Below, piece by piece: positions 8,147 to 14,404 of a stretch of DNA of 64,000 nt. Position 1 is the stretch's first letter. Every line of letters starts with the position of its first letter. The stretch spans positions 372,001 through 436,000 of the forward strand of contig NZ_JHEP02000001.1 of NCBI RefSeq assembly GCF_000657795.2. Reading direction: 5' to 3'. Both the position numbers and the translations under genes were made by a program. A model generated the notes under the pieces. The model was not told the DNA's origin, made no database searches, and saw only the letters and a list, made by a program, of their open reading frames with translations. The DNA is from Bordetella pseudohinzii (lineage in GTDB: Bacteria > Pseudomonadota > Gammaproteobacteria > Burkholderiales > Burkholderiaceae_B).

Positions 8147-8518
8147 ATGGCAGAAAAGAAAGTTATTTTCGTTGCATTCGCTATTGAAGACGAAAGGCAA
8201 AGGGACTTTTTGAAAGGTCAATCACTCCTTACAAACTCTCCTTTCGAATACATAGATATGTCAGTCAAGGAAGCCTACACGTCGGAATGGAAAGACAAAG
8301 TTCGCACCCGAATTCGCCGATCAGACGGCGTGATCGCCTTGATCAGCAAAAACTCCTTGTCGTCTAGTGGGCAGAAATGGGAGATTGCTTGCGCACGTGA
8401 GGAAGGGAAAAAAGTATTGGGAATCTGGGCCTATTCCGATGATCGAACCAAAATTGAAGGCGTAAACACCGTTGTATGGACATGGGACGCCATCAAAAAT
8501 TTTATCAATAGCCTTTGA
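8147..8518 (+). CDS. ThsB-like TIR-domain protein (DUF1863/MTH538 type)
   Basis: 123 residues, essentially a single TIR-like domain. The start at 8147 has an AGAGAGGA ribosome site. Visible features: strand A KKVIFVAFAIEDERQRD (residues 4-20), FEYIDMSVKEAY (33-44), an I-RRSDGVIALISKNS strand (56-70), and the putative catalytic glutamate Glu79 in QKWEIACAREEGKKVLGIW. This matches the short ThsB family, which in Thoeris systems senses phage and makes a cyclic ADP-ribose isomer from NAD+. It is the first gene of a three-gene operon, 18 bp before the caspase-like gene. Base composition is much more AT-rich than the island backbone, indicating acquisition. Catalysis and signal identity are inferred from the family. 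Confidence 0.82.
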   Translation: MAEKKVIFVAFAIEDERQRDFLKGQSLLTNSPFEYIDMSVKEAYTSEWKDKVRTRIRRSDGVIALISKNSLSSSGQKWEIACAREEGKKVLGIWAYSDDRTKIEGVNTVVWTWDAIKNFINSL

Positions 8519-8536
8519 AATGCGAGGGGTGATGTT

Positions 8537-9511
8537 ATGCGCATAGCTCTTATCGTAGGCATAAATCACTACGAACATGGAGGCTCTTTGTATGGTTGTG
8601 TCGATGATGCTCATGCGGTGCAAGCTGTCCTAGCTCGCCACGGGGATGGATCGATCAACTTCGATTGCAAATTGTTCACAGGGACTGGGCCAACCGATCG
8701 CGTTGAACGGTCTTTACTAAAAGATCGCGTCGAAGAACTTTTCAAGGCGCAAGCTGATATTGCTCTTTTTTATTTTGCTGGTCATGGGCATATTGAAGCG
8801 ACTGGAGGATATTTGCTGGCGACGGACTCTCGCCGTGGTGACGAAGGGTTATCGCTTTCCGAGGTTCTTGCATTGGCTAATAAATCGCCTGCACGCAACA
8901 AGATAATCATCCTTGATAGCTGCCATTCAGGAATAGCCGGCACCCCCCCAGTCGCAGGAGAGCTTGCCAGTTTGTCTGAAGGTTTGACGATCCTCACTGC
9001 TTCAGCGGCTGATCAATATGCAACGGAAGAAAATGGTAGGGGCGTATTCACAACCCTATTGGTAGATGCTCTTCATGGCGGGGCGGCTAACCTCACTGGC
9101 GACATCACCCCGGGCAGCATTTATGCACATGTCGACCAATCCCTGGGGGCTTGGGAGCAGCGCCCTATCTTTAAAACCAACGTCCGGCAATTCGTCTCGC
9201 TTCGAAAGGTCAATCCGCCTATCTCCCTTGATGACCTCAGGCGCATAACAGAATTTTTCCCTCAACGTGGTTTTGAATACCAGCTTGATCCTACGTTCGA
9301 GCCGGAGATGAAGGGCAGAGATCCCGGCATGCCTCCGCCAGACCTTGAAAATACGCGGAAATTCGCACTACTGCAGCGATACAATCGCCTTAATTTGGTC
9401 GCGCCTGTAGATGCGCCACACATGTGGCACGCAGCCATGCAAAGCAAGTCGTGTAAATTGACGGTGCTAGGCGAGCATTATCGACTTCTTGCTGAAAAAC
9501 AACGTCTATAG
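8537..9511 (+). CDS. Caspase-like (peptidase C14) protease
   Basis: 324 residues. The N-terminal caspase fold (about 1-220) starts [20 protein letters not shown], with the catalytic dyad His83 in [10 protein letters not shown] and Cys129 in [13 protein letters not shown], each preceded by the usual hydrophobic strand. The C-terminal 95-100 residues (about 226-324: [20 protein letters not shown] onward) form a separate domain that I do not recognise by sequence. In TIR-caspase (type IV Thoeris) systems the protease is switched on by a TIR-made nucleotide signal and degrades cellular proteins; the C-terminal part would be the candidate signal sensor. It is 18 bp after the first TIR gene and 22 bp before the second. 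No signal peptide or membrane segment, so cytoplasmic. Confidence 0.88.
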
Positions 9512-9533
9512 CGTATTCGAAAAAGGATTAGTT

Positions 9534-10013
9534 ATGAGGATATTTCTATCCCATCAGAAAACTGACTCGGCGTTGGCCTTGAAGGTACAAGGTCACCTAA
9601 AAAGCAATCATGATATTGATTGTTATCTGGATGTCATTGATCCTAAGCTGACTAATGGCGAAGACATTGCGGCGCATGTCAGAAATGAATTGGATAGATG
9701 TACGCAGCTTCTAGCTGTTGTTTCTGATGCGACTAAAGGGTCATGGTGGGTGCCATGGGAAATAGGTGTGGCGACGGAGAAAGATTTTCCTCTCGCCACG
9801 TTTGGCGGAAGCATTGAACTACCAGAATATTTAAAAAAATGGCCATACCTCAGAAGCATTTCTGATCTGGATAAATATGCTGAGGCCTCTAAAGATGCAT
9901 CCAAACGCGTGCTAACAGCAAACGTGGAATCAGCTTCGTCTGGGACGACTGTATTCAGGGGTGAGGCTACAAAATACTTCTATAAAGCCTTGCGGGCAAA
10001 ACTCGGACAGTGA
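9534..10013 (+). CDS. Second TIR-domain protein of the operon
   Basis: 159 residues. The start at 9534 is preceded by AAAGGA; an upstream Met at 9489 lies inside the caspase gene and lacks a good ribosome site. TIR features: MRIFLSHQKTDSALALKVQG (residues 1-20), IDCYLDVIDPKL (28-39), CTQLLAVVSDATKGSWWVPW (56-75), then Glu76 of WEIG as the probable NADase glutamate. It differs from the first TIR protein (SWWVPWEIG style rather than KWEIACA) and has a C-terminal helical tail (residues 107-159). It could be a second phage sensor, an alternative signal producer, or an accessory effector. The same AT-rich composition and tight spacing support one operon. Confidence 0.82.
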   Translation: MRIFLSHQKTDSALALKVQGHLKSNHDIDCYLDVIDPKLTNGEDIAAHVRNELDRCTQLLAVVSDATKGSWWVPWEIGVATEKDFPLATFGGSIELPEYLKKWPYLRSISDLDKYAEASKDASKRVLTANVESASSGTTVFRGEATKYFYKALRAKLGQ

Positions 10014-10083: not shown

Positions 10084-10932
10084 TCATGAGCCTCCGGCTT
10101 GCTGTCGGAGGCTGTATTTCCGGGCAAATTCGCCCGGTGTTAAATCGTTCAGGGCCATGTGAGGCCGAGTTTCATTGTAGTCCTGGCGCCAAGCCTCGAT
10201 CTCTCGTTTGGCTTCTGCTAATGATTCGAACCAATGCAAGTTCAGGCATTCGTCCCTGAACGATCCATTGAAGGTTTCAATGAAGCTGTTGTCGGTCGGT
10301 TTGCCCGGCCGGCTGAAGTCGATCTGCACCTTGTAGTGATAGGCCCACATATCCAATAGCCGCCCGGAGAACTCGCTGCCGTTGTCGGCAAAGAGAAAGC
10401 GCGGCACCTGCCGCTGGGCGACCAATCGGTTCAACACGCCGACGACGTCTTCGGCGCGCAAACGTTGCCCGACCTCCGTGGCAAGGGCTTCTCGGGTGAA
10501 GACGTCCACGATGGTCAGCACCCGTAGGCGCGCCCCATTGGCCAATTGGTCCGCGACAAAGTCCAGGCTCCACACTTCATCCGGCTGCCTCGGTACGCAC
10601 CGTTCACGGCGCGGCACCGCCATCTAGCGTCGCCTGGGCAGCTTGCTACGCAACTGCAATTGCTCATCGGCATAGAGTCGATAGACTCGATTGCGGCTGA
10701 CCTGCCAGCCTTCCCGGCGCAGGAGGACGTGGATGCGCCGATAGCCATAGCGGATCCGCGTCTGAGCGATCTCACGCATGCGCTGCCGAAGCGCCGTTTG
10801 CGGATCCTTAACGCTGCGGTAGTAATGTGTGCTGCGTGCCTGTTTGACCAACCTGCACGCCCGCTGTGTGCAAAGGCCGTAGTGATCCTGGATGTAGGTC
10901 ACTGCTTGCCTCTTCACCGCGGGCGCGGCCAT
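10084..10932 (-). pseudogene. IS3-family transposase orfB, interrupted by a stop codon
   Basis: Integrase-core transposase. The frame is continuous except for a TAG at 10624-10626 between KLPRRR and MAVPRRERCVPR; IS3 relatives usually have Lys here, so a single AAG-to-TAG change explains it. The DDE triad is intact downstream: Asp in VWSLDFVADQL, Asp in FLFADNGSEF, and Glu in SFIETFNGSF exactly 35 residues after the second Asp. The N-terminal HTH_21-type region (RIRYGYRRIHVLLRREGW) is before the stop. It overlaps orfA by 19 bp in another frame, as needed for programmed -1 frameshifting in this family. Confidence 0.85.
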
Positions 10933-11192
10933 TTTTTTATGGCGATCTCCTGCAAAATCACCTTATCCAGGCTGAGTTCGGCGACGAGCTTCTTGAGCCG
11001 AGCATTCTCATCTTGCAGTTGTTTGAGTTCGCGGACCTGGTTCGACTCCAGGCCCGCGTAAAGGCGCTTCCACCGGTAATACGTCTGCTCGGATACGCCA
11101 AGCTGACGCACCAGATCGGCCACCGGCATGCCCAACTCTGCCTGTTTGAGCGCCGCGACGATCTGCTCGACCGAATATTGCTTGCGTTTCAT
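10914..11192 (-). CDS. IS3-family transposase orfA (HTH_8 type)
   Basis: 92 residues starting MKRKQYSVEQIVAALKQAEL. An N-terminal helix-turn-helix (GMPVADLVRQLGVSEQTYYR, then WKRLYAG) is followed by a leucine-zipper-like coiled coil (VRELKQLQDENARLKKLVAE). The coding frame is intact. It binds the terminal repeats of the element; alone it is often a repressor of transposition. Confidence 0.88.
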   Translation of the reverse strand: MKRKQYSVEQIVAALKQAELGMPVADLVRQLGVSEQTYYRWKRLYAGLESNQVRELKQLQDENARLKKLVAELSLDKVILQEIAIKKWPRPR

Positions 11193-11992: not shown

Positions 11993-12517
11993 TCATCTGA
12001 CCAGAGCCTGGAGTTCCTTGGACGCCGACTGCGGCAACCGCTGGCCCTCCTTCGCCACGTTGACCTGCAGGGCAATCCGCGCCACATCCAGCACGTCCTT
12101 GGCCAGCGAATGGCTGCCCTTGGCCTGCAGCCAAGCCAGCACATCCGCCAGGTGCCAAATCGACGCACTTCCTTCATGCACCGGTGCGGGGAAGCTGCCG
12201 GGATATGCCAGCATCAACTTGCGCATGTTCTGCCGCGATACGCCAACAATCTCCGCCACATCGGTCAGACCAACCAAGTCCGGCGCCACCTCGATCAGCC
12301 GTGCCGACGGCACGACACGGCGCACATCTGCTAGCGCGCTGCGAACCGCTTCGTCCGCATCCGCCGCCTCGCGAGTGAACTCCAGCGCCAGTCGCCCCGG
12401 CTGGCCGATACCGACCAAGGCATCGTCGCAACCGGCTCCGCCCAGGCGTTCGACCAGAGCGTCCGTGTCGCGGTCCTCGTCGGCAAGCTGGTACTTCAAG
12501 GTGAAGGTGTATTCCAT
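11993..12517 (-). CDS. HTH DNA-binding protein paired with HicA-like gene (putative antitoxin)
   Basis: 174 residues starting MEYTFTLKYQLADEDRDTDA; start chosen for AAGGAG at 7 nt spacing. The N-terminal 80 residues form a small alpha/beta domain (LVERLGGAGCDDALVGIGQP). Residues about 95-145 are a MerR/AlpA-like HTH: VGLTDVAEIVGVSRQNMRKL, MLAYPGSFPAPV, IWHLADVLAWLQ. It begins 4 bp after the stop of the HicA-like gene, so the two are translationally linked. Antitoxin or autoregulator by analogy with HicAB; unproven. Confidence 0.72.
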   Translation of the reverse strand: MEYTFTLKYQLADEDRDTDALVERLGGAGCDDALVGIGQPGRLALEFTREAADADEAVRSALADVRRVVPSARLIEVAPDLVGLTDVAEIVGVSRQNMRKLMLAYPGSFPAPVHEGSASIWHLADVLAWLQAKGSHSLAKDVLDVARIALQVNVAKEGQRLPQSASKELQALVR

Positions 12518-12521
12518 CGCG

Positions 12522-12797
12522 CTACTCCTTGACATCATCTTCAGCCATGCGCTGCTTGCGATGCGTGGTGCAGTTGTCCACGACTCGCCGCAAGGCGCGG
12601 GCGTGGTTGCCAGGGTTCTTCGGCGTACTCCATATCGACGTGATACAGAACTCGCCGCAGCGACACTCCTCATCGTTGTACGGGCAATACATCCGCCCCC
12701 AAGCGTGGCTCCCACCGACCTCGACGCGCCAGCCCTGTCCTTCGGCGTGCCTGAGAGCTTCCTCGACCTCTTGCTTCGGATGAGAGGAACGGGTCAT
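12522..12797 (-). CDS. HicA-like small protein (putative toxin)
   Basis: 91 residues. The opening KQEVEEALRHAEGQGWRVEV followed by GGSHAWGRM recalls the HicA mRNA-interferase fold, in which the GSH histidine is catalytic. Unlike canonical HicA it has a cysteine cluster (CPYNDEECRCGEFC, about residues 38-51) that could bind a metal, and a conserved-looking STPKNPGNHARALRR tail. It is first in a two-gene unit with the HTH protein. A type II toxin-antitoxin-like module is the best reading; function is inferred. Confidence 0.65.
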   Translation of the reverse strand: MTRSSHPKQEVEEALRHAEGQGWRVEVGGSHAWGRMYCPYNDEECRCGEFCITSIWSTPKNPGNHARALRRVVDNCTTHRKQRMAEDDVKE

Positions 12798-12857: not shown

Positions 12858-14114
12858 TCAGACCGTCGCGCTCAACGTAGGAACGACGACGTTTTCTGGC
12901 ATCAGCTTCGGCACGTAGGTCTGCCCGTCGATCCAGGCATCAACCATGTTCGCCCACTCCTGCAGCATGTGGCGCCGCTGCTCGGCATACTCGGCCTTGT
13001 TGTAGATTGAGCGTGAGGAGCGCCCCTCTTCATGTGCCAAGCACTTCTCGATCCAATCGCGGTTGAAACCGATTTCGTTGAGCAGTGTCGAGCCGGTACG
13101 GCGCAGGTCGTGGACGGTGAAAGGCTCCAGCGGCAAACCGGCCGCCTTCGCACGTTCCGCGACGATCTGCGTGACGCGATTCAAGGTAGCGTTCGACATG
13201 CAGCGGTCGGCGTCATAGCGAGATGGCAGCACGAACTTGGAGCCGGCAGCGCAGGTGTGCAGCGCTACGAAGATGTCGAGTGCCTGGCGGGAGAGATAGA
13301 CCACGTGCGGATTGCGCCCCTTCATCCGCTGTTTTGGAATCGTCCAGGTCGCGTTCTCGAAATCGACTTCATCCCAAGTGGCCTGGATCAACTCGCTCTT
13401 ACGCACCAGCGTCAGCAGGATCATGCGCAACGCCAGCCGGATTGTCGGATAGGTCGCCACTGATTCCATCTGTCGCGCCATCAGGCGGATCTCCAACGGC
13501 GACAAGGCGCGATCCTTCGGCACGAAGGTCGCGATCGACGTAGCGCCGACGCCGTCGGCGGGATTGTCCACCTTCTCGCCATGCAGGATGGCGAAGGCAT
13601 AAACCTGCTTCACGATGTCGCGGATATGCACCGCAGTGGCGGGCGCACCACGTGCCTTCACCTTGCTGCAAAGGGCGCGCAGGTCATCGGCAGTGATTTC
13701 ATTGAGTTGTCGGTTCTGGAAGATCGGCAAGATGTCCCGATCGACGATGTGCTTGCGCATCGCCTTGGTGCTATCGGCCATCCGGGCACCTTCCAGCCAC
13801 TTCGCGGTCACGTCGCCGAAGGTCTTCGCGGCAGTCAGCCGGCGCTTCTCGCGCTGCTTCTCCAGCGCGGGGGACTTGCCCTGGGCGACGGCCTTCTTGG
13901 CGTCGATCAGCTTTTCGCGGGCCAATGCCAACGAAATGCCCGCCGGACCGTAGCGGCCAATGGTCAGCGTCTCGCGGCGCCCGTTGAGACGGTAATCGTA
14001 GCGGAAGGTGACGGTACCGGTAGGCGATACCGTCACGTACATCCCATCGCGGTCAGAAGCCTTATAAATCTTGGACTTAGGCTTGAGGTTGCGCAGTGCG
14101 GTGTCGGTAAGCAT
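12858..14114 (-). CDS. P4-type tyrosine recombinase (island integrase)
   Basis: 418 residues starting MLTDTALRNLKPKSKIYKAS, with AGGAGG upstream of the start at 14114. Residues 1-95 are the DUF4102-type arm-binding domain (TIGRYGPAGISLALAREKL). The core-binding domain spans about 100-190 and the catalytic domain about 205-390. Catalytic residues are visible: Arg238 (LVRKSELIQ), His335 and Arg338 (VHDLRR), His361 (CLAHEEGR) and Tyr371 (SIYNKAEY). All are present, so the enzyme should be active. It lies 0.3 kb from the guaA 3' end, pointing toward it as island-end integrases do, so the target is inferred to be guaA. Confidence 0.93.
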   Translation of the reverse strand: MLTDTALRNLKPKSKIYKASDRDGMYVTVSPTGTVTFRYDYRLNGRRETLTIGRYGPAGISLALAREKLIDAKKAVAQGKSPALEKQREKRRLTAAKTFGDVTAKWLEGARMADSTKAMRKHIVDRDILPIFQNRQLNEITADDLRALCSKVKARGAPATAVHIRDIVKQVYAFAILHGEKVDNPADGVGATSIATFVPKDRALSPLEIRLMARQMESVATYPTIRLALRMILLTLVRKSELIQATWDEVDFENATWTIPKQRMKGRNPHVVYLSRQALDIFVALHTCAAGSKFVLPSRYDADRCMSNATLNRVTQIVAERAKAAGLPLEPFTVHDLRRTGSTLLNEIGFNRDWIEKCLAHEEGRSSRSIYNKAEYAEQRRHMLQEWANMVDAWIDGQTYVPKLMPENVVVPTLSATV

Positions 14115-14143
14115 CGAGGTATTTCCTCCTGTTCGTGACGGCA

Positions 14144-14404
14144 TTTACCGTCAGGGGCCAGGAGACCTGCTGATGCTCGGAAAGCCGCATGAAACAAGCT
14201 TTCCCGAGGAGACTTTTACCGTCAAAGACGGCTTTGGTCCGAATAGTGAACGGGAGGGTCTTAATCCGGCCTCCGGTTCTTACCGCCACTTCCACCGTCA
14301 ACCTGTTCTGCTGGCCGGCGATAGTCACCGATAGATGCCGCGACGTATCCACTTGAAAATCAACACGTTACGGCAGTTTTTCGATAGCTGGCGATAGTCC
14401 CCGA
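14144..14404. repeat. Direct repeats between integrase and guaA (candidate integrase arm sites)
   Basis: Two 15-bp direct repeats, GGCGATAGTCACCGA (14317-14331) and GGCGATAGTCCCCGA (14390-14404), differ at one base. A second pair, TTTACCGTCA, occurs at 14144-14153 and 14215-14224. Such repeats beside an integrase and an attachment site are typical of arm-type binding sites. No gene is seen in this 270-bp stretch. Confidence 0.5.

What the first reader, a model, noticed from the sequence alone, without database searches (positions are those of the whole stretch)
8147..10013. TIR-caspase-TIR defence operon on a mobile island (type IV Thoeris-like with an extra TIR protein)
Seen: three tightly spaced same-strand genes of AT-rich composition within a GC-rich ICE: a 123-residue ThsB-like TIR protein (Glu79), a C14 protease with the FYFAGHG His83 and LDSCHSG Cys129 dyad, and a 159-residue second TIR protein (Glu76 in WEIG). 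Known: TIR enzymes make cyclic ADP-ribose-type signals, and a TIR plus caspase-like protease pair (type IV Thoeris) halts phage growth by signal-activated proteolysis. Inference: this operon is such a system, and the two-TIR composition may be a variant not yet described.
Basis: partly seen in the sequence, partly recalled or inferred. Interest (0 to 1): 0.9.

Follow-up and report, generated by a model that had tools for sequence, protein, structure and literature searches.

The report
Caspase defence operon with companion TIR
A mobile DNA element carries a gene for a caspase-like protein-cutting enzyme between two different TIR genes; they likely form a virus-defence system of a known type in which a TIR-made signal would switch the cutter on, and the second TIR, a less common and faster-changing partner, is predicted to help sense infection.

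Summary
In detail: TIR1 (8147-8518, Glu79), a C14 caspase-like protease (8537-9511, His83/Cys129) and TIR2 (9534-10013, Glu76) lie 18 and 22 nt apart, at 47-48% GC in a trb-type ICE beside guaA. TIR plus caspase is a conserved pair: a TIR lies directly upstream of the caspase in 77 of 80 genome loci and 50 of 52 plasmids. This matches type IV Thoeris (TIR makes N7-cADPR, which activates a caspase-like protease), a known system; activity was not tested. TIR2 is the new part. It is facultative (16 of 52 plasmids, 3 of 80 genome loci), but in TIR2-seeded searches all 20 strong hits (16 plasmids, 3 genomes with this one, 1 viral contig) lie near a TIR and caspase, against 0 of 10 weak loci fetched. 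TIR2 keeps its Glu (74 of 74), is under purifying selection and diverges about 2.9 times faster than its caspase (13 pairs). Best reading: a two-TIR variant of type IV Thoeris with TIR2 likely a co-sensor, like ThsB1/ThsB2 of type I. The founding type IV paper could not be read, so novelty is provisional.

The parts
8147..8518 (+). TIR1: 123-aa minimal TIR protein, ThsB_TIR family; Glu79 codon 8381-8383; regular partner of the caspase
   Evidence: F8 and E79 invariant in 16 of 16 loci; a TIR within 250 nt upstream of the caspase in 77 of 80 genome loci
8537..9511 (+). caspase-like protease, 324 aa: residues 1-225 caspase fold, His83 codon 8783-8785, Cys129 codon 8921-8923
9212..9508 (+). C-terminal part of the caspase (residues 226-324), conserved and without assigned family; inferred place of signal sensing
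   Evidence: Pfam match ends at residue 214, NCBIfam match at 203; mean conservation 0.68 against 0.72 for residues 1-225, 22 positions at 95% or more in 69 sequences; fold matches span 1-225 only
9534..10013 (+). TIR2: 159-aa companion TIR with C-terminal helices 109-132 and 138-157; Glu76 codon 9759-9761
12858..14144 (-). context: tyrosine integrase of the ICE, next to guaA
   Evidence: Pfam Phage_integrase and Arm-DNA-bind_3

Best explanation
The operon is a TIR plus caspase-like protease pair with a companion TIR, and it likely works as a two-TIR variant of type IV Thoeris anti-phage defence: on infection TIR1 is predicted to turn NAD+ into a cyclic ADP-ribose signal (probably N7-cADPR) that would activate the caspase, while TIR2 would act as a co-sensor that helps trigger TIR1. 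Shown here: the three genes, their tight spacing, their intact catalytic residues, the near-universal TIR-caspase pairing, the company of strong TIR2 hits with such pairs in TIR2-seeded searches, and the faster divergence of TIR2 under purifying selection. Predicted: the caspase and TIR2 folds (models). Inferred from published type IV Thoeris: signal identity, protease activation, and proteolysis that stops phage growth. Inferred from the ThsB1/ThsB2 precedent of type I Thoeris, from TIR2's constant company with a TIR1-type gene and from its rate: that TIR2 is a sensing partner and not a second stand-alone system. The caspase's C-terminal part (226-324) is the inferred sensor of the signal.
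For: Core pair: a TIR ORF within 250 nt upstream of the caspase, same strand, in 77 of 80 genome loci; on plasmids 47 of 52 by TIR1 tblastn, gaps 2-94 nt, and 3 more by annotation. Citing papers describe type IV Thoeris as a TIR and a caspase-like protease in one operon (PMC12847820, passages). TIR2: of 17 plasmid hits all 16 strong ones (E <= 4e-18) lie within 2.42 kb of the caspase; of genome hits at E <= 1e-15 the 3 above 148 bits, the own genome among them, lie beside TIR and caspase; so does the 1 viral hit. Control: of 12 genomes with weaker hits (63-92 bits) 10 stretches were fetched, none with this caspase. Each of these 20 strong loci also holds a TIR1-type gene (divergent in L005). 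Rate: in 13 of 13 matched cases TIR2 is more diverged than the caspase, mean 21.8% against 7.6%. dN/dS 0.024-0.041 for TIR1, 0.030 for the caspase, 0.076-0.088 for TIR2. Precedent: in S. aureus type I Thoeris one TIR binds the phage capsid protein and recruits a second, catalytic TIR (PMC12578639, passages).
Against: No biochemistry or phage assay. TIR2 keeps a full catalytic motif, so it may make a signal itself. TIR2 is absent from 36 of 52 plasmid caspase loci and, as a strong hit, from 77 of 80 genome loci, so the core must work without it. In 5 of 16 plasmids TIR2 is on the strand opposite to the caspase, 1.2-2.3 kb away (four are near-identical pTi plasmids); in the pTi plasmids it sits beside CHAT and S8 peptidase genes it might serve instead. 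The split between strong and weak TIR2 is not clean: caspase-seeded loci L041, L074, L081 and L090 hold weak TIR2-like genes of 69-87 bits. Distance correlations are modest: TIR2-caspase r 0.34 (p 0.010), TIR1-TIR2 r 0.21 (p 0.048), 16 loci. Faster divergence also fits weaker constraint. The sequences of the tested type IV system were not at hand.
Confidence: 0.6

Rival explanations
1. Parallel sensors: TIR1 and TIR2 are independent signal makers, each with its own phage trigger, and either can activate the one caspase, as proposed for Bacillus Thoeris systems with several ThsB proteins.
For: Both TIRs keep F and E at the pocket positions in 16 of 16 loci. 21 of 80 genome loci carry at least one further TIR-like ORF of various kinds. 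Independent ThsB action is called most likely for Bacillus (PMC11204291, passage).
Against: In the 20 strong TIR2-seeded loci TIR2 never stands with the caspase without a TIR1-type gene.
Confidence: 0.25
2. Island neighbour: TIR1 plus caspase is type IV Thoeris, and TIR2 is a separate defence gene (for example a stand-alone NAD+-depleting TIR) that travels in the same defence islands.
For: Facultative presence, variable position and strand, and neighbours such as CHAT and S8 peptidase genes.
Against: All 20 strong TIR2 hits of the TIR2-seeded searches are near a TIR and caspase; a free neighbour should also occur elsewhere. In the window TIR2 is 22 nt behind the caspase.
Confidence: 0.1
3. An EACC1-caspase conflict system of Kaur et al. 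2020 and not Thoeris.
For: The only NCBIfam match of the caspase is caspase_w_EACC1 (102 bits).
Against: It is below that model's cut-off of 140 bits, and the 5' gene is a ThsB_TIR protein, not the EACC1 gene with one TM helix that the paper describes.
Confidence: 0.03

Closest known systems
Type IV Thoeris (TIR + caspase-like protease; Rousset et al. 2025, known here through citing papers and recall, not read)
   Same: TIR gene and caspase-like protease gene in one operon, intact catalytic residues in both
   Different: a second TIR of another subfamily follows; signal and activation untested here; no sequence of the tested system was at hand to compare
Type I Thoeris with ThsB1/ThsB2 (S. aureus, PMC12578639)
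   Same: two TIR proteins with one effector; gives the model for TIR2 as co-sensor
   Different: the effector there is ThsA, which degrades NAD+, not a caspase; the sensor ThsB1 is far larger (41.8 kDa with tag) than TIR2 (159 aa)
Thoeris of E. coli CFT073 with TM-macro ThsA and two ThsB (PMC11204291)
   Same: two TIRs with one effector
   Different: the effector is a TM-macro protein
EACC1-caspase two-gene systems (PMC7159879)
   Same: caspase gene as 3' gene of a two-gene unit
   Different: the 5' gene there has a TM helix and is not a TIR; the caspase match is below cut-off

Membership tests
Type IV Thoeris | TIR gene and caspase-like protease gene in one operon | tested here: met
   18-nt gap in the window; 77 of 80 genome loci, 50 of 52 plasmids; feature taken from PMC12847820
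Type IV Thoeris | catalytic His/Cys of the protease | tested here: met
   H83 and C129 invariant in 69 rows; predicted caspase fold
Type IV Thoeris | catalytic Glu of the TIR NADase | tested here: met
   E79 in 16 of 16 and 13 of 13 rows
Type IV Thoeris | TIR makes N7-cADPR | not testable with these tools
   needs biochemistry
Type IV Thoeris | the signal activates the protease and phage growth stops | not testable with these tools
   needs assays
Type IV Thoeris | sequence relation to the experimentally tested proteins | not tested
   founding paper not held; no accession at hand
Type I Thoeris | SIR2-SLOG ThsA effector in the operon | tested here: not met
   the only non-TIR gene is Peptidase_C14, with no SIR2 or SLOG match
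Thoeris with TM-macro ThsA (type II) | TM-macro ThsA effector in the operon | tested here: not met
   no macro-domain match in the three proteins
EACC1-caspase system | 5' EACC1 gene with one TM helix | tested here: not met
   the 5' gene is ThsB_TIR; definition from a PMC7159879 passage
EACC1-caspase system | caspase scores above the NCBIfam cut-off | tested here: not met
   102 bits against 140

The most novel reading that the evidence does not exclude
TIR-caspase immunity is a modular platform: a slowly evolving TIR1-caspase executor shared across phyla is armed by interchangeable, fast-evolving companion TIRs, of which the TIR2 family is one dedicated line; TIR2 reads the phage and licenses TIR1, so bacterial caspase activation runs through a heteromeric TIR receptor, as in animal and plant TIR assemblies.
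Probability: 0.4. Interest if true: 0.72.

Novelty: new variant of a known kind. Interest (0 to 1): 0.5.

Why it matters
If true, it would extend the two-TIR sensor design, shown for NAD+-degrading type I Thoeris, to the caspase-activating type, and make an open question testable: what type IV Thoeris senses. A companion TIR that diverges about 2.9 times faster than the executor is a candidate for the phage-facing part. A caspase 98% identical to this one is on 266 contigs and a TIR2 84% identical on 215, both bearing the source name Pseudomonas aeruginosa (P0010; P0127), so the system may matter for phage susceptibility there.

Tried and rejected
EACC1-caspase, type I and TM-macro Thoeris: rejected, see the membership rows. 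PDB sequence searches: TIR2's best hit is 8btn (profile E 1.8e-23); caspase hits were metacaspases, MALT1 and, weakly, single other entries; no solved type IV caspase was recognised among them. Fold search covers residues 1-225 only, so the C-terminal part of the caspase was barely tested and its fold is open. Promoter scan: 1 site against 1.9 expected, so no promoter claim; the hairpin behind the operon folds no better than shuffles (z -0.42). ICE far end: the 19-mer at the guaA 3' end has one copy in the genome within 3 mismatches, so the attachment repeat was not found. TraI_2 search negative. E. coli genomes, near mode: no match. Phage records: 2 with a caspase relative, not followed. One search (Mantel test on 20 and 16 loci) held one mis-framed TIR2 (L167); one search repeats it on 16 loci, without L011, L041, L074 and L090. 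Not used in either: L002 and L008 (broken caspase genes), L005, L163 and L165. Weak-hit genomes G624 and G1036 were not fetched. Profiles A2-A4 were built partly from the plasmid loci, so scores of those loci are inflated; the plasmid and protein counts do not rest on them. TIR1 was not modelled.

Full report
Observation. Three same-strand ORFs stand at the stated place: TIR1 8147-8518, caspase 8537-9511, TIR2 9534-10013, 18 and 22 nt apart. GC is 47.2% and 48.0% in the two 1-kb bins that cover them, against 57.5-73.1% in the other 62 bins. Pfam gives ThsB_TIR, Peptidase_C14 and TIR_2, each above its cut-off. PADLOC gives ThsB models for both TIRs and 'caspase' for the protease. Outside the operon the genome has no Peptidase_C14 or TIR_2 match.

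Setting. The island is an ICE. A tyrosine integrase lies beside guaA, with AlpA, ParB_N and DUF932 genes inward. On the same contig, 4-32 kb left of the window and taken as the same element, are IncP-type TraG, TrbE and TrbL (each above its NCBIfam cut-off), an RlxS-like relaxase (646.7 bits, below that model's cut-off of 850; DUF3363 482 bits, above its cut-off) and siderophore-uptake genes. A second TrbE-type gene lies about 70 kb further left. The attachment repeat was not found.

Core pair. In 77 of 80 a TIR ORF ends within 250 nt of the caspase on the same strand; the others are L024, L030 and L039. On plasmids, the 60 rows listed of 118 hits hold 52 of this caspase family (40% identity or more; 9 of them end at query residue 128). 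47 of 52 have a TIR1 hit 2-94 nt upstream and 3 of the other 5 an annotated TIR there; one has a divergently placed TIR and one, short at its 5' end, none. Of 369 genomes of the class, 50 have some caspase match but only 3, this one included, are of this family (over 500 bits; the rest 84 or less); the two others have TIR1 upstream. In viral contigs, 13 of the 15 loci L124-L138 have a TIR directly upstream. TIR1 and caspase are conserved: the top 120 rows of each protein search stay at 81% identity or more.

Companion TIR2. This was tested from the TIR2 side to avoid circularity. Plasmids: 17 records matched. The 16 strong ones (E <= 4e-18) lie within 2.42 kb of the caspase: 8 downstream on the same strand (4 of them 11-26 nt behind the match), 3 upstream, 5 on the other strand. 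The weak one (Pantoea, E 9e-7) sits among other TIR genes and a macro-domain gene. Genomes: 398 and 399 were searched (the own genome and some others in both); 11 and 5 had a match at E <= 1e-15. The three above 148 bits (own, G482, G572) are beside TIR and caspase. Of 12 genomes with weaker matches (63-92 bits) I fetched 10 stretches; none shows the caspase at E <= 1e-4. Viral contigs: 1 match, beside TIR1, with the caspase nearby on the other strand. From the caspase side strong TIR2 is rare: 3 of 80 genome loci (L014, L037, L052). Against a clean split, four more of the 80 (L041, L074, L081, L090) hold weak TIR2-like genes of 69-87 bits; in all 21 of 80 carry some further TIR-like ORF. The protein searches found 685 TIR2 relatives (of 734 candidates) and 7355 TIR1 relatives (of 7362) at E <= 0.001; those come without gene context.

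Rates. TIR2 is the more diverged in 13 of 13, mean 21.8% against 7.6%; one pair (98 and 97% identity) is close. Between window and L014, dN/dS is 0.041 (TIR1), 0.030 (caspase) and 0.076 (TIR2); between window and L002, 0.024 (TIR1) and 0.088 (TIR2). dS is 0.8-1.3, so these are rough, but all point to purifying selection. Among the 17 closest TIR2 rows, changes spare residues 71-90 and gather at 11-20 and 121-150. Distance matrices over 16 loci correlate modestly: TIR1-caspase r 0.386 (p 0.009), TIR2-caspase 0.336 (p 0.010), TIR1-TIR2 0.211 (p 0.048).

Mechanism. [quoted passage not shown] another counts 12 type IV Thoeris operons behind 443 capK genes (PMC13373217, passage). In S. aureus type I Thoeris ThsB1 binds the capsid protein and recruits ThsB2, whose catalytic residues are needed; in a Streptococcus system the catalytic residues of ThsB1 are needed and those of ThsB2 are not (PMC12578639, abstract and passages). 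In Bacillus, several ThsB most likely act independently (PMC11204291, passage). TIR2's constant company with a TIR1-type gene and its fast divergence favour a co-sensor; its intact Glu keeps the parallel-sensor model open.

Novelty. Searches listed no paper recognisable as describing a two-TIR type IV locus. I read passages of PMC13373217, PMC12847820, PMC12578639, PMC11204291, PMC7159879, PMC8195603, PMC13232231 and PMC12856790; the other listed papers were seen as titles and abstract starts. Rousset et al. 2025 and Chen et al. 2026, seen as a title in a reference list (not held), could not be read, so the claim stays provisional.

Noticed in passing
window 11993-12797 (-): Two adjacent genes match PADLOC candidate defence families PDC-M06A (E 2.7e-54) and PDC-M06B (E 2e-84), between the AlpA gene and the integrase: a second candidate defence unit on the same island.
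   Followed up: partly
window 10084-11192 (-): An IS3-type element directly behind the operon; its second reading frame is split by an in-frame stop (ORFs 10624-10932 and 10084-10623), so it looks inactive.
   Followed up: no
L193 and L194 (own contig, 336000-372000): The ICE carries a TonB-dependent siderophore receptor and FecCD/periplasmic uptake genes between the transfer genes and the relaxase; further TrbE/VirB4-type genes lie about 70 kb left on the same contig and on contig C23.
   Followed up: no
L009, L161, L162: A five-gene form in Alphaproteobacteria: TIR2, TIR1, caspase, a small protein and a metallophosphoesterase (annotation; in L009 the small protein has no Pfam match and the other is calcineurin-like).
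   Followed up: partly
L164:5513-5992: In two Rhizobium plasmids one gene sits between caspase and TIR2; in L164 it has a weak YpsA-SLOG match (18.4 bits, cut-off 27.7). SLOG domains bind cADPR-type signals in ThsA (recalled), so it may be a signal binder.
   Followed up: partly
L006, L007, L163, L182, L183: TIR2 beside CHAT and S8 subtilase genes as well as the caspase: several protease types in one TIR locus.
   Followed up: partly
L013:4001-4949 and 8 similar plasmid records: In Salmonella, E. coli and Klebsiella plasmids a full-length TIR1 gene is followed by a caspase match that ends at query residue 128, so the executor looks broken.
   Followed up: partly
L002:4282-8196: On a P. aeruginosa plasmid the operon, with the caspase gene in two ORF pieces, ends about 0.7 kb before anti-CRISPR genes acrE1 and acrF3.
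   Followed up: no
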